From an uncultured Bacteroidales bacterium (lineage in GTDB: Bacteria; Bacteroidota; Bacteroidia; Bacteroidales; UBA932): 23,324 bases of DNA. Below are positions 11,702 through 15,662 of the stretch, in pieces (the stretch's first letter is position 1; each line of letters begins with the position of its first letter). The notes beneath the pieces were generated by a model. It did no database searches. It was not told where the DNA came from and was given only the letters and a program-made list of their open reading frames with translations. A program made the position numbers and the translations under genes. The stretch covers positions 1-23,324 of the forward strand of contig CAMOKK010000005.1 in assembly GCA_946617545.1 (NCBI GenBank). The letters run 5' to 3'.

Positions 11702-11729
11702 AGTTAACATAATATAAATTGTGTAACTA
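11702..11729 (-). other. Candidate chromosomal dif site (XerC/XerD recombination site)
   Basis: Read on the minus strand, this 28-bp stretch splits into an 11-bp arm TAGTTACACAA, a 6-bp centre TTTATA and an 11-bp arm TTATGTTAACT. The last arm matches the E. coli XerD arm TTATGTTAAAT at 10 of 11 positions and the centre matches TGTATA at 5 of 6. The XerC-side arm, always the more variable one, keeps the conserved final A-x-A-A pattern but otherwise matches poorly (4 of 11). The site fills the gap between the acyltransferase stop (its TAG is the first three bases) and the rlmD start. Supported by motif only; whole-genome tests are needed. Confidence 0.5.
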
Positions 11730-12919: not shown

Positions 12920-14128
12920 TTACACTCTTTCCAACAAAGAGCTGTCTCCATAGCTAAGGAACCTAAAGTTATGCTTTAATGCATAATCGTAAATAGTTCG
13001 CCAATCGCCATTTACAAAAGCAGAAACAAGTAAAATAAGGGTGCTTTCAGGCTGATGAAAATTGGTCAGAAGTTTGTCTACCAGACGGAAACGGAAACCG
13101 GGAACAATGATAATACGGGTTCCGGCCACCAGATAATCAAGCCCCTGCTTGTCCAAATAGGCCCAAATGGCCTTCAAGGCCTCCTGGGTGGAGTAAGGAT
13201 ACTCCCGCTCATAGGGAGCCCACTGGCCGACATCCTCCGGCGCTCCCCTCTCAATACAGCTTACACCAACATAATAAAGGGATTCCAAAGTACGCACAGA
13301 AGTAGTTCCTACGGCCAAAAGGGGGCTTTTTTTATTTGCCAGACGCTCAATCAAAGACTTGGATACCACAAACGGCTCCCTGTGCATGGGATGCTCGGAG
13401 ACCAGGGAACTTTTTACCGGCAAGAAAGTACCGGCCCCAACATGCAGGCACACGGTTTCCATCTGCACTCCCCTCTCCTTCAGACGGTTAAGGACATCTT
13501 CCGTAAAATGAAGGCCGGCCGTCGGGGCCGCCACGGACCCCCTGATATGTGCATAAACAGTCTGATAACGCCTGATATCCACTTCCTCCGACTCTCTGTT
13601 CAGATATGGAGGGATAGGAACACTCCCAGCCTGCTCCAGGACTTTGGAGAACGGCAAAGAATTGTTCCACGAGAACTTGACCAGTCCTGTCTTTCCGTCT
13701 CTTCCTACCAACTCTGCCTTCAGGTCCAAAGAATCCAATTCCGGGGCCGAAAGTGGATTATAAAGGTGTAGTATGTCTCCCTTCCATTTTTTGGCGTTTC
13801 CAAGGACGCATTTCCAGACACATTCGGAATCCGCCGCAAATGCAAGATTGTACTCCGAGGGAGTCAGCGGCTCCAAACAAAAGATTTCAATCTGGGCTCC
13901 GGTCTCTCTCTGGAAATGCATGCGGGCAGGTACCACTTTGGTATCATTGAAAACCATGAGAGTCTCTTCACTGAGAAGAGCGGGCAATTCACGAAAAACT
14001 TTTTCTTCAATTTTCCCATCCTTATAGTGAAGGAGTTTGGAAGCATCTCGCTGTTCAAGCGGATATTTGGCTATTCGATCGTCTGATAGCGGATAAGAAT
14101 AATCTTCTATGTGTATTTCTGGTATCAT
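12920..14128 (-). CDS. queA: S-adenosylmethionine:tRNA ribosyltransferase-isomerase QueA
   Basis: A 402-residue enzyme of queuosine synthesis: it transfers the ribosyl part of SAM to preQ1 in position 34 of tRNAs with GUN anticodons, giving epoxyqueuosine. Family signatures are clear: MVFNDTKVVPAR (about 58-69), SVAAPTAGLHFT, CLHVGAGTFLPV, AVGTTSVRTLES and the C-terminal NFHQPESTLILLVSAF. At about 400 residues it is longer than the E. coli form (about 356), as is usual in Bacteroidales. It has its own promoter at 14151-14158, whose start site is overlapped by one of the TTCA-N6-TGAA dyads (14136-14151), so it may be controlled by the XRE regulator encoded on the other side of the gap. No other queuosine gene and no preQ1 riboswitch is visible here. 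Confidence 0.97.
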   Translation of the reverse strand: MIPEIHIEDYSYPLSDDRIAKYPLEQRDASKLLHYKDGKIEEKVFRELPALLSEETLMVFNDTKVVPARMHFQRETGAQIEIFCLEPLTPSEYNLAFAADSECVWKCVLGNAKKWKGDILHLYNPLSAPELDSLDLKAELVGRDGKTGLVKFSWNNSLPFSKVLEQAGSVPIPPYLNRESEEVDIRRYQTVYAHIRGSVAAPTAGLHFTEDVLNRLKERGVQMETVCLHVGAGTFLPVKSSLVSEHPMHREPFVVSKSLIERLANKKSPLLAVGTTSVRTLESLYYVGVSCIERGAPEDVGQWAPYEREYPYSTQEALKAIWAYLDKQGLDYLVAGTRIIIVPGFRFRLVDKLLTNFHQPESTLILLVSAFVNGDWRTIYDYALKHNFRFLSYGDSSLLERV

Positions 14129-14135
14129 TGCGAGA

Positions 14136-14151
14136 ATTCAATATTTTGAAC
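14136..14151 (-). promoter_or_regulatory. Operator-like dyad A, over the queA transcription start
   Basis: Minus strand reads G-TTCA-AAATAT-TGAA-T, a TTCA-N6-TGAA dyad. It overlaps the last base of the queA -7 element and covers roughly -4 to +11 of the predicted start site, a position where a bound repressor would block initiation. Confidence 0.6.
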
Positions 14152-14158
14152 AAAGGTA
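14151..14158 (-). promoter_or_regulatory. -7 promoter element for queA
   Basis: Minus-strand TACCTTTG, matching TAnnTTTG. Transcription is expected near 14147, about 19 nt before ATG 14128. Its downstream edge touches operator-like dyad A. Confidence 0.65.
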
Positions 14159-14214
14159 CAGATTTTATCCCAGATATCGAAATTTAGTCACACGGCTACT
14201 CCAGATACTGTTTT

Positions 14215-14230
14215 GTTCACAAAAATGAAA
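14215..14230 (+). promoter_or_regulatory. Operator-like dyad B
   Basis: Reads G-TTCA-CAAAAA-TGAA-A. It agrees with dyad C (read on the other strand) at 15 of 16 positions, so B and C also form a long inverted repeat with an 18-nt spacer. Confidence 0.65.
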
Positions 14231-14248
14231 TTCAAATTTCAAACCATG

Positions 14249-14264
14249 TTTCATATTTGTGAAC
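14249..14264 (-). promoter_or_regulatory. Operator-like dyad C
   Basis: Minus strand reads G-TTCA-CAAATA-TGAA-A. It differs from dyad B at one position. Centre-to-centre distance is 34 bp to B and 27 bp to D. Confidence 0.65.
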
Positions 14265-14275
14265 TATATTCATCT

Positions 14276-14291
14276 GTTCAGAAAATTGAAA
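14276..14291 (+). promoter_or_regulatory. Operator-like dyad D
   Basis: Reads G-TTCA-GAAAAT-TGAA-A, matching dyad B at 14 of 16 positions. Confidence 0.65.
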
Positions 14292-14411
14292 ATAAGCGTG
14301 CTAAAATTAGATAATAAAATTCGATTATTAATTATTATGTTGTGTTATATACTTCTAAATCAATAATTTATTAAATCAAAACTAAAGTTTAACTAAATAA
14401 AATATATAACA

Positions 14412-14461
14412 GGAGGTAACTTCTATCCATGCAAAATTGCTATTATATGATGAATTTATGA
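14412..14461 (+). other. Perfect Shine-Dalgarno with a 10-codon open frame
   Basis: GGAGGT, fully complementary to the 3' end of 16S rRNA, is at 14412-14417, 11 nt before an ATG at 14429 that opens the frame MQNCYYMMNL and stops at TGA 14459-14461. No other gene in this window has such a strong site. It could be a leader peptide, a relic, or chance; no promoter was found just upstream. Confidence 0.25.
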
Positions 14462-14569
14462 TGCTATCATGATTAATTTCAGCTATTTATTCGTATTATC
14501 TAAAGTATAGCTTCGCATATTTAAACTTCGAAATCAGCGTTTTTCTGTTATTCGCCCTCAAAAATTCGT

Positions 14570-14600
14570 TTTGCAGTCTAAAAAAATTGTTTTATTTTTG
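14570..14600 (+). promoter_or_regulatory. Full consensus promoter for the XRE regulator unit
   Basis: TTTG at 14570-14573, exactly 19 bp, then TATTTTTG at 14593-14600: the complete Bacteroidota -33/-7 arrangement and the best promoter in the window. The expected start is near 14604, so operator-like dyad E (14611-14626) lies just downstream at about +7 to +22. Confidence 0.8.
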
Positions 14601-14610
14601 TGGTGTTAAT

Positions 14611-14626
14611 GTTCAGAAATATGAAT
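14611..14626 (+). promoter_or_regulatory. Operator-like dyad E, over the regulator start codon
   Basis: Reads G-TTCA-GAAATA-TGAA-T, matching dyad C (minus strand) at 14 of 16 positions. It includes the ATG at 14621 and begins at the last base of the ATG at 14609, fitting autorepression of the XRE gene. Confidence 0.6.
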
Positions 14627-14983
14627 CGCAGGCTTTTACAGTTCTTACAAGCTGAAAACATTACCCAGACTCAGCTGGCCGATACCCTCTCTGTCGCAAG
14701 AGGAAGCGTATCCAATATTTTAGCAGGAAGAAACAAGCCCGGCTATGATTTTTTGGAGAGCCTCATTCTTCACTATCCCAATCTGAACTTGGAATGGCTC
14801 CTAAGCGGAAAAGGCAAAATGTACCATGACCAGGATAAAGTCGAAGCCTCCGGAAAAGAGGATGACTCCCCCATACAACTGGATCTGTTTTCGCCACAAA
14901 AGCAGGCTCCGTCACGGGAAGTATCCAAAATAATGGTCTTCTACTCTGACAAAACCTTCCAGGAATTCCATCCAAGCGAATAA
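14621..14983 (+). CDS. XRE/Cro-CI-type helix-turn-helix regulator
   Basis: A 120-residue DNA-binding protein. The N-terminal five-helix XRE domain covers about residues 1-65: the turn and recognition helix lie in TQTQLADTLSVARGSVSNIL (about 15-34), then AGRNKPGYDFLESLILHYPN and the LEWLLSGKGKMY segment often seen in Bacteroidales relatives. A charged linker is followed by the C-terminal motif SKIMVFYSDKTFQEFHP; I recall similar KIM-hydrophobic-F-S-D-x-T-F tails in Bacteroides XRE proteins. There is no S24 peptidase domain. ATG 14621 is chosen; in-frame ATG 14609 would add four residues and leave almost no leader. Dyad E on the start codon suggests autoregulation; dyad A suggests control of queA. 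Codon use resembles its neighbours downstream. Confidence 0.87.
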   Translation: MNRRLLQFLQAENITQTQLADTLSVARGSVSNILAGRNKPGYDFLESLILHYPNLNLEWLLSGKGKMYHDQDKVEASGKEDDSPIQLDLFSPQKQAPSREVSKIMVFYSDKTFQEFHPSE

Positions 14984-14988
14984 TTTGT

Positions 14989-14996
14989 TAAATTTG
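14989..14996 (+). promoter_or_regulatory. -7 promoter element for the PyrD-like/cinA pair
   Basis: Reads TAAATTTG, matching TAnnTTTG, 6 bp after the regulator stop. Transcription would start near 15000, about 20 nt before ATG 15021. No TTTG box is seen upstream, so this may supplement read-through from the regulator promoter. Confidence 0.5.
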
Positions 14997-15020
14997 CAGC
15001 GTATTACAAGCTACGCTGCT

Positions 15021-15662
15021 ATGTCCTTCATTTGTTTTCGCAAGAAAAAAGCCCTGGATATACATTGCCTCGGGCTGGAATTCAAGAATCCCATCGGCAT
15101 TCGGGATCTTTCTATGGGCAGCCGGGCCGGATTTATGACACTGACACAGCCCGAGGACCGTATTCTGGATTGGATTTTGAAGGTTCAGGAGCATAGAAAC
15201 AAAACTGTTTTAGCCATCAACGTTTCATCAGACCTGGCCAAGACCTTTTCGCTCGTCTACGATTTCTCGGACCTTATCATCATAGATCCCGACGGAGACC
15301 ATGGAATAGACTCCCCCGACATCTCCGACACTTCGGTTCTCCTGGATGAGATTGTGAGTCTCCGGTTGTGTTATGAACGCTACACACCCATCGCCTTCAG
15401 GCTCTCTCACGGCCATACTCCGGACGAAATCGAAGAGCTTGTAAACCATTGCCGCCTTTCAGGCATCGACGCCATCGTGGCTCCAGGAGCAAAGAAGGTG
15501 GCTCACATCATAGAAATGACCCAGGGCCGACTGCCCGTTATAGGAGAGGCCGGCTCGCAGGAAGAGGCCCTGGAATGTCTGAATGCCGGAGCCAGCCTGG
15601 TAGAAACCACTTTGGGCCCCATCGGCCTCACCAAACTGATTAAAACTTTATCCCAAAAATGA
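15021..15662 (+). CDS. Degenerate dihydroorotate-dehydrogenase-like TIM-barrel protein
   Basis: A 213-residue protein resembling a shortened class-2 PyrD (normally about 330-350). Visible likenesses: LGLEFKNPIG near the start (compare L-F-K-N-P-V-G in PyrD), the internal AINVSSD strand, the pattern SGIDAIVAPG, and the C-terminal phosphate-binding region RLPVIGEAGSQEEALECLNAGASLVE. Missing: the membrane-binding N-terminus, the G-F-D-K-N-G loop, the N-x-S-S-P-N-T-P segment with the catalytic serine (here IIIDPDGDHGID), the FMN-contacting Lys of V-K-I-A-P-D (here FRLSHG) and the N-T of A-T-N-T (here APG). It is unlikely to oxidise dihydroorotate; it may bind a phosphorylated ligand. ATG 15021 is chosen because the longer TTG frame starts before the -7 element. 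Its TGA overlaps the cinA ATG by four bases (ATGA). Confidence 0.6.
   Translation: MSFICFRKKKALDIHCLGLEFKNPIGIRDLSMGSRAGFMTLTQPEDRILDWILKVQEHRNKTVLAINVSSDLAKTFSLVYDFSDLIIIDPDGDHGIDSPDISDTSVLLDEIVSLRLCYERYTPIAFRLSHGHTPDEIEELVNHCRLSGIDAIVAPGAKKVAHIIEMTQGRLPVIGEAGSQEEALECLNAGASLVETTLGPIGLTKLIKTLSQK

What the first reader, a model, noticed from the sequence alone, without database searches (positions are those of the whole stretch)
14136..14626. Five-copy operator-like array TTCA-N6-TGAA linking queA to an XRE regulator
Five dyads of the form TTCA-N6-TGAA lie within 491 bp, at 14136-14151, 14215-14230, 14249-14264, 14276-14291 and 14611-14626. In each the same strand also has a flanking G before TTCA and A or T after TGAA, and the centre is A-rich. 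Pairwise identity among dyads B-E is 12-15 of 16. An 8-base fixed pattern should turn up well under once in such a stretch. One copy covers the predicted queA transcription start, one covers the start codon of the XRE gene, and three cluster between. The natural reading is that the XRE protein binds these sites, represses itself and queA, and loops or oligomerises over the cluster. A dedicated repressor acting on queuosine-tRNA synthesis together with a PyrD-like/CinA unit is not something I know to be described.
Basis: partly seen in the sequence, partly recalled or inferred. Interest (0 to 1): 0.75.

Follow-up and report, generated by a model that had tools for sequence, protein, structure and literature searches.

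The report
Self-regulating operator array beside queA
The gap between a tRNA-modification gene and a small regulator gene in a rumen bacterium holds a real, evolutionarily conserved set of binding sites that the regulator most likely uses to control itself and probably its neighbour; the mechanism is of a familiar type, but this family of regulators looks undescribed.

Summary
In detail: five TTCA-N6-TGAA dyads in the queA-XRE gap; shuffles of the gap give a mean of 0.04, never more than 1. Close relatives keep the array at nearly the same offsets, dyad D excepted. In the rest of the family the site becomes TTTACA-NN-TGTAAA: 99 sites at up to one mismatch to TTYACANNTGTRAA against 1.5 expected in 59 gaps, two of them the same locus. 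In 28 loci of other families queA was not seen beside the XRE, yet 25 have such sites. So the site follows the XRE gene. The TTCA form goes with His32-to-Asn in the recognition helix.

Family-wide the sites form two clusters, at queA and at XRE; between them stand two direct repeats that fit the E. coli IHF consensus. Best reading: an autorepressor with local operators, probably acting on queA too, perhaps by looping. XRE binding is well supported by comparison; queA control and looping are inferred. No wide regulon was seen. The PyrD-like gene is a shrunken pyrD.

In passing: the family's dif site lies at 11702-11729; the locus is terminus-proximal.

The parts
14137..14150 (.). Dyad A, TTCAATATTTTGAA, directly beside the queA -7 box, over the predicted queA start of transcription
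   Evidence: exact in 8 of 8 close loci at this offset
14151..14158 (-). Predicted queA -7 box TACCTTTG (Bacteroidota type TAnnTTTG; consensus recalled)
   Evidence: sequence; CAAAnnTA within 80 bp of queA in 48 of 59 gaps
14216..14229 (.). Dyad B, TTCACAAAAATGAA
   Evidence: exact in 6 of 8 close loci; TTTACAnnTGTRAA-like at the aligned place in many sister loci
14250..14263 (.). Dyad C, TTCATATTTGTGAA
   Evidence: exact in 6 of 8 close loci
14277..14290 (.). Dyad D, TTCAGAAAATTGAA; weakly conserved
   Evidence: exact in 3 of 8 close loci at this offset; no invariant half-site column
14300..14306 (+). Conserved GCTAAAA box, in some sister loci half of an inverted repeat TTTTAGCA-N-TGCTAAAA; role unknown
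   Evidence: alignment
14358..14370 (+). Direct repeat 1, AATCAATAATTTA; fits IHF consensus WATCARNNNNTTR exactly; candidate DNA-bending site
   Evidence: exact consensus at this place in 24 of 30 genus loci; consensus read in PMC9820253
14477..14489 (+). Direct repeat 2, TTTCAGCTATTTA; one mismatch to the IHF consensus; about 119 bp after repeat 1
   Evidence: exact consensus at this place in 13 of 30 genus loci
14570..14573 (+). Predicted XRE -33 box TTTG (consensus recalled)
   Evidence: sequence; aligned
14593..14600 (+). Predicted XRE -7 box TATTTTTG
   Evidence: TAnnTTTG within 45 nt of the start in 59 of 59 gaps
14612..14625 (.). Dyad E, TTCAGAAATATGAA, over the XRE start codon (ATG 14621)
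   Evidence: exact in 9 of 9 close loci
14621..14983 (+). XRE regulator, 120 aa: HTH domain, disordered linker, C-terminal beta hairpin; Asn32 in the recognition helix
   Evidence: Pfam HTH_3 and Phage_CI_repr over cut-off; model pLDDT 80.4
12920..14128 (-). queA, 402 aa, divergent neighbour
   Evidence: NCBIfam NF001140 and TIGR00113 over cut-off; beside XRE in 28 of 29 family loci L017-L045 and 29 of 30 of L046-L075, L053 being cut by the contig end
14985..15662 (+). PyrD-like remnant, 225 aa from a TTG (213 aa from an internal ATG)
   Evidence: DHO_dh below cut-off; 340-388 aa frame at the same place in 29 of 29 loci L017-L045
15659..16918 (+). cinA, 419 aa
   Evidence: Pfam CinA, MoCF_biosynth, CinA_KH over cut-off

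Best explanation
The array is the operator set of the XRE protein encoded next to it. A dimer binds each 14-bp palindrome: TTTACA-NN-TGTAAA in the family at large, TTCA-N6-TGAA in the window's clade, where Asn replaces His at recognition-helix residue 32. Binding at the XRE promoter and start codon represses XRE itself. Binding at the queA end, in this clade right beside the queA -7 box (dyad A), most likely represses the divergent queA. The two clusters may be held together by a loop, helped by a bending protein of the HU/IHF class at two direct repeats between them. Control is local, not a wide regulon. Shown from sequence: array, conservation, association with XRE, promoter overlap, two-cluster layout. 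Inferred: XRE binding (about 0.85), self-repression (about 0.8), queA control (about 0.55), looping (about 0.3). Unknown: the signal; nothing here ties it to queuosine.
For: Array far above chance. Offsets kept in close loci: A 8 of 8, B 6 of 8, C 6 of 8, E 9 of 9; half-site columns invariant in 23 of 36 against 27% of gap columns, matched by 2 of 492 shifts. Family: 99 sites against 1.5 expected in 59 gaps, consensus derived from these gaps. Other families, not used to derive it: 49 sites in 25 of 28 loci against 0.58, queA in none of the 28 stretches held. In 18 genomes I chose, 10 of 27 exact sites lie in XRE gaps; reversed control 11 in all (with XRE places). Asn32 loci (9): mean 3.6 exact TTCA-N6-TGAA, 0 exact TTACANNTGTAA; His loci (48): 0.04 and 0.73. 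Outside the close clade (51 gaps) 92 of 213 sites start 20-199 bp from queA, 114 of 213 within 80 bp of XRE. IHF consensus between them: 41 on the + strand, 4 on the -, 2.4 expected, in 30 genus loci.
Against: No binding or expression data. The His/Asn link rests on one informative event: L058 has Asn but no exact site of either form. Dyad D is not conserved. Part of the family signal at -30 overlaps the -7 box. Three of 28 other-family loci have no site. Queue-side sites outside the clade lie upstream of the queA promoter, so they could serve XRE alone or activate queA. The IHF fit was noticed after seeing the repeats, is weaker in other family loci (16, 2, 2.8 expected) and unclear in other families (10 on +, 6 on -, 2.6 expected).
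Confidence: 0.7

Rival explanations
1. Autoregulation only: all sites, also those near queA, serve to repress XRE (as auxiliary operators); queA is a bystander.
For: In 28 loci of other families XRE carries the sites without queA in view. Outside the close clade queA-side sites lie mostly upstream of the queA -7 box.
Against: Dyad A beside the queA -7 box, exact in 8 of 8 close loci, is badly placed for anything but queA control; the queA-XRE pairing is kept in 28 of 29 family loci.
Confidence: 0.3
2. The dyads are sites of some other regulator, and XRE is an unrelated neighbour.
For: No binding data. CopR/CopY operators have the inner letters TACANNTGTA (PMC7253601, search listing with the start of its abstract only).
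Against: Sites follow XRE into other families and to a second XRE copy in G020; they change with an XRE recognition-helix residue.
Confidence: 0.07
3. The XRE-DNA complex is part of terminus biology (fork barrier or terminus organiser, Tus/RTP/MatP-like), autoregulated as tus and rtp are (recalled).
For: The locus lies at or near the + to - GC-skew switch in three single-contig genomes; dif is 2.9 kb away in the window and 3-136 kb away in the 30 genomes with both on one contig.
Against: Sites are symmetric and essentially confined to this gap, whereas Ter and matS sites are many and spread; distance to dif varies widely, at least 135 kb in G040; they overlap promoters. In other families proximity to the terminus was tested only in G279, weakly.
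Confidence: 0.04
4. An RNA element (riboswitch or hairpins) rather than DNA operators.
For: Gap of nearly constant length (440-547 bp in 58 of 59 gaps, 762 in L041); preQ1 riboswitches control queuosine genes elsewhere (recalled).
Against: No Rfam family at gathering score in window, L048, L050, L060, L017; the gap alone gives only two sub-threshold eukaryotic families. Dyad arms are 4 bp and A/T-rich and lie at or upstream of predicted starts.
Confidence: 0.02

Closest known systems
Autoregulated XRE/Cro-CI-type repressors with several operators (SinR, 434 Cro/CI, C proteins; HigA-type antitoxins)
   Same: HTH fold (best PDB matches SinR, 434 Cro, P2 C, HigA, all E above 0.001); palindromic sites over the own promoter and a divergent promoter; C-terminal part likely for oligomerisation (inferred)
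   Different: Own C-terminal hairpin motif with no hit of its own; no toxin, phage or methylase neighbour; queA/pyrD/cinA neighbourhood; site TTTACA-NN-TGTAAA
Repression loops with architectural proteins (gal repressosome with HU; recalled)
   Same: Two operator clusters flanking two candidate bend sites
   Different: No evidence yet of bridging or of bending-protein binding; different protein family
CopR/CopY operator TACANNTGTA (PMC7253601, listing and start of abstract only)
   Same: Inner ten letters of the family site
   Different: Protein family differs (CopY is of the BlaI/MecI type, recalled); resemblance taken as chance or convergence
Tus/TerB and RTP/TerI systems (recalled)
   Same: Small DNA-binding protein, autoregulated, gene near the terminus
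   Different: Symmetric sites in a single gap, no spread of polar sites seen

Membership tests
XRE / HTH_3 regulators | HTH_3-type DNA-binding domain over the curated cut-off | tested here: met
   PF01381 26.6 bits against 23; PF07022 28.3 against 22; HTH_19 28.6 misses its cut-off of 30.2
XRE / HTH_3 regulators | Binds the palindromes | not testable with these tools
   comparative support only
Phage CI/LexA-type repressors | C-terminal S24 peptidase-type domain | tested here: not met
   120 aa; after residue 70 a low-confidence linker and a short hairpin; Pfam listed only HTH families
Toxin-antitoxin antitoxin (HigA) | HigA family model and a toxin partner | tested here: not met
   TIGR02607 16.7 bits against 47.7; next genes are pyrD-like and cinA
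Repression loop / repressosome | Two operator clusters with sparse sites between | tested here: met
   92 and 114 of 213 sites in the two end zones, 51 gaps outside the close clade
Repression loop / repressosome | Bridging by the repressor, bending protein bound between | not testable with these tools
   consensus fit only
Queuosine-responsive control | Known preQ1 riboswitch or response to queuosine | tested here: inconclusive
   no Rfam match; ligand of XRE not tested
Fork-trap or terminus organiser (Tus/RTP/MatP) | Many sites spread over the terminus region | tested here: not met
   sites essentially confined to the gap
dif site (noticed at 11702-11729) | One copy per genome near the GC-skew switch, XerD arm like TTATGTTAAAT | tested here: met
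   exactly one in 48 of 51 family genomes, 0 of 29 others; skew in three genomes; arm letters recalled

The most novel reading that the evidence does not exclude
A conserved nucleoprotein switch of Bacteroidales: an XRE protein bound to two operator clusters and an IHF-like bender at two repeats fold the queA-XRE gap, close to dif, into a loop that couples tRNA modification, and possibly the state of the replication terminus, to the level of the regulator.
Probability: 0.08. Interest if true: 0.8.

Novelty: new variant of a known kind. Interest (0 to 1): 0.5.

Why it matters
It gives a DNA motif, a candidate specificity residue and an architecture for an XRE group with matches (E<=0.001, paralogs included) in 127 of 149 genomes sampled from the order, on which five paper searches returned nothing. 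If queA control is real, it is a protein repressor on a queuosine gene, testable at mapped sites. The natural His32/Asn32 difference with matching sites is a ready specificity experiment. The dif site places the locus at the chromosome terminus of this family.

Tried and rejected
Wide regulon: not seen with these patterns; the own genome is only 57% complete, so absence there is partial. Exact TTCA-N6-TGAA in all relatives: absent from nearly all loci outside the close clade (exceptions one site each in L066 and L073), which looked like refutation until the alignment showed the changed form. Replication origin in the gap, considered for its constant length and bend-like repeats: rejected, as GC skew runs + to - there and 12 of 12 16S genes in four single-contig genomes are read toward the XRE on their arm, with dnaA about 300-340 kb away in three. 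The skew is noisy, with stray pieces of opposite sign in G077 and G003; in G279 the XRE place is the best of six matches and the origin was taken as its antipode. dif inside the gap (CATAA-N7-TTATG box): rejected, dif is at 11702-11729. RNA element. Defence or phage gene: PADLOC and PHROGs matches are at HTH level. Short ORF after AGGAGG near 14413: not conserved.

Rows dropped or repeated: L053 (contig begins 63 bp before XRE) and L039 (queA not in view) are out of the gap sets; L076-L079 are not orthologous. L040 and L080 are the same locus, so 59 gaps are 58; L024/L025 and L028/L030/L034 are close kin. In one search the regex left 11 proteins unscored: 7 read His by eye (L037, L070, L095, L097, L099, L100, L107), 4 are L076-L079. 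Three rows (L113, L115, L116) were off-centre and are ignored.

Full report
What is there. Five TTCA-N6-TGAA dyads lie at the stated places between queA (-) and an XRE gene (+); a sixth copy lies inside queA. Chance does not make them: 5 against a mean of 0.042 in 5000 shuffles of the gap, and 1 of 1000 shuffles has any 4-base dyad of any spacing reaching 5.

Genome. The window is contig 5 of a 57% complete MAG, and its XRE is the only match there. TTCA-N6-TGAA occurs 52 times against 13 for the reversed pattern. Of the 50 listed only the five array copies have an A/T-rich centre (at most one G or C). Of 15 sites examined in context, the 10 outside the array lie in open frames of 400 codons or more.

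Close relatives. The one scan of genome contigs gave 35 loci. In the eight closest (L046-L053, XRE 76-93% identical) dyads recur at nearly the same distances from the XRE start (-484, -405, -371, -344, -9). Exact copies, window counted: A 8 of 8, B 6 of 8, C 6 of 8, D 3 of 8, E 9 of 9; L053 shows only E because its contig ends. Half-site columns are invariant in 23 of 36 cases, gap columns in 27%; 2 of 492 shifts of the pattern do as well. E is partly coding, so its conservation is partly that of the protein.

Wider family. At lower identity the exact pattern is gone, but for single copies in L066 and L073; the alignment shows its successor, TTTACAnnTGTRAA, at B and near the XRE promoter. With TTYACANNTGTRAA, derived from these gaps, 59 gaps (58 distinct) hold 99 sites at up to one mismatch against 1.5 expected, 241 against 19.4 at up to two. 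Distances between sites peak at 24 and 48 bp. Part of the signal at -30 comes from overlap with the -7 box. Three gaps have no site even at two mismatches: L055, L075, L042.

Wider order. 127 of 149 sampled genomes have an XRE match at E<=0.001, paralogs included. In the 28 best-scoring loci from other families (L081-L108) tblastn found no queA in the stretch held (up to about 1.5 kb on each side, some shorter), while 25 of 28 have at least one site at up to one mismatch within 600 bp, 49 sites against 0.58 from single-base shuffles. These loci were not used to derive the consensus and are the best test that the site belongs to XRE. A PyrD-type frame follows XRE in 11 of the 28 by eye.

Rarity. 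In 18 family genomes that I chose, exact TTYACANNTGTRAA occurs 27 times against 11 for the reversed control; five genomes have none. Set against the XRE places, five of the 27 lie in the C68 gap of G020, one 79 bp before its second XRE on C165, and the only exact site of G040, G057, G021 and G043 is in its XRE gap: 10 of 27. In the window's genome, with one mismatch, 9 sites equal the control's 8.

Recognition helix. Window, L046-L053 and L058 read SVSN(32)IL; the other orthologs read His at that place (72 scored His, 10 Asn, 7 more His by eye). The 9 Asn loci with a full gap average 3.6 exact TTCA-N6-TGAA and 0 exact TTACANNTGTAA; the 48 scored His loci 0.04 and 0.73. On a QueA tree of 34 rows the label needs two changes in every bootstrap tree, though strongly supported branches alone force only one. 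L058's gap has no exact site of either form. So there is one informative event: a strong hint, not proof.

Layout. A TAnnTTTG box lies within 45 nt of the XRE start in 59 of 59 gaps, mostly at -28; a queA-ward box within 80 bp in 48 of 59. In the 51 gaps outside the close clade, 92 of 213 sites start 20-199 bp from the queA start and 114 within 80 bp of XRE. Dyad A beside the queA -7 box is a feature of the close clade. Between the groups stand two direct repeats of AATCAGTTATTTA type at about -263 and -145. A longer form of the repeat was found four times in nine genomes, in three of them, and all four have the letters of gap copies in L049, L050 and L051: it is not dispersed. It fits the IHF consensus WATCARNNNNTTR (passages read in PMC9820253). 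In 30 genus loci the exact consensus occurs 41 times on the + strand, 4 on the -, 2.4 expected; 24 loci have it at the first place, 13 at the second. In 29 other family loci: 16, 2 and 2.8, with 6 and 6. In other families it is not clearly enriched: 10, 6 and 2.6. I noticed the fit after seeing the repeats; it is a lead.

Protein. HTH_3/CI-type domain, low-confidence linker, and a C-terminal hairpin (residues 104-107 and 113-116) with a conserved KI-VFY-D-TF-E motif. Fold matches are ordinary HTH proteins, none at E<=0.001. By sequence the PDB gave a CI repressor at E 0.018 and a designed protein at 0.08. Of 777 homologs, 120 listed, the given names say only XRE-family or helix-turn-helix regulator.

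Neighbours. queA beside XRE: 28 of 29 loci L017-L045 and 29 of 30 of L046-L075. The frame after XRE is 340-388 aa in 29 of 29 loci L017-L045; in L046-L069, where my filter found one of this kind, it is 197-233 aa; it found none in L056, L057, L061, L065 (cut) and L070, a doubtful 111 aa in L066, and cinA directly in L071. A strong DHO_dh match (E<1e-70) exists in 7 of the 15 genomes behind those loci (G297-G302, G306), on another contig than the XRE locus in the three that I could check (G298, G299, G300); 6 of 20 genomes searched have no match, G000 among them. XRE and array outlived pyrD here, so pyrD is unlikely to be their reason in this clade.

Terminus. In G077, G010 and G003, 20-kb samples show GC skew turning from + to - at or near the XRE locus, with some noise. 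On the arm they lie on, 12 of 12 16S genes in four genomes are read toward it. A dif-like 28-mer lies at 11702-11729; its 23-bp core is identical in 14 related loci, inverted in L058, and occurs, with up to 3 mismatches, exactly once in 48 of 51 family genomes, 0 of 29 others, control pattern 2 hits. In 30 genomes with both on one contig dif and XRE are about 3-136 kb apart; in 17 they lie on different contigs, with at least 135 kb between them in G040. PMC3025954 reports dif near the skew switch and predicts dif in 19 of 19 Bacteroidetes (passages read). I see no direct tie to the operators.

Literature. Five searches on queuosine, queA, DHODH or pyrD with XRE, repressor or regulator terms returned no paper; a search for the half-site letters with Bacteroides gave 53 papers, 15 listed, none on this site by title. 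Most subscription papers are not held, so absence is weak.

Verdict. The array is real and is most likely the XRE protein's own operator set. Control of queA and looping are inferences with the tests given.

Noticed in passing
window 11702-11729 (-): Candidate dif site TAGTTACACAATTTATATTATGTTAACT between the acyltransferase and rlmD genes; core found exactly once in 48 of 51 family genomes, inverted in L058.
   Followed up: yes
G077, G010, G003 around the XRE locus: GC skew turns from + to - at or near the XRE locus and 16S genes are read toward it: terminus-proximal locus.
   Followed up: partly
window 14985-15662: pyrD beside XRE has shrunk to about 213-225 aa in this clade and is gone in L071; 340-388 aa in 29 of 29 loci L017-L045.
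   Followed up: partly
window 14300-14306 and following bases; L054, L057, L061, L062: GCTAAAA box, part of an inverted repeat in some sisters, followed by CATAA-N7-TTATG-like dyads; unexplained.
   Followed up: no
upstream of XRE in many of L046-L071: Recurrent CTCCCCTA/CTATCCCC-type run roughly 60-110 bp before the XRE start; unexplained.
   Followed up: no
window 14621-14980, C-terminus; XRE orthologs: C-terminal motif KI-VFY-D-TF-E shared by XRE orthologs across the order, modelled as a beta hairpin; function unknown.
   Followed up: partly
G020 C68 and C165: Two XRE copies in one genome, with five exact TTTACANNTGTAAA sites before one and one before the other.
   Followed up: no
window 14412-14460: AGGAGG followed by a short ATG frame inside the gap; not conserved in relatives.
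   Followed up: partly
G077, G010, G003: dnaA lies neither at the XRE locus nor at the - to + skew switch.
   Followed up: no
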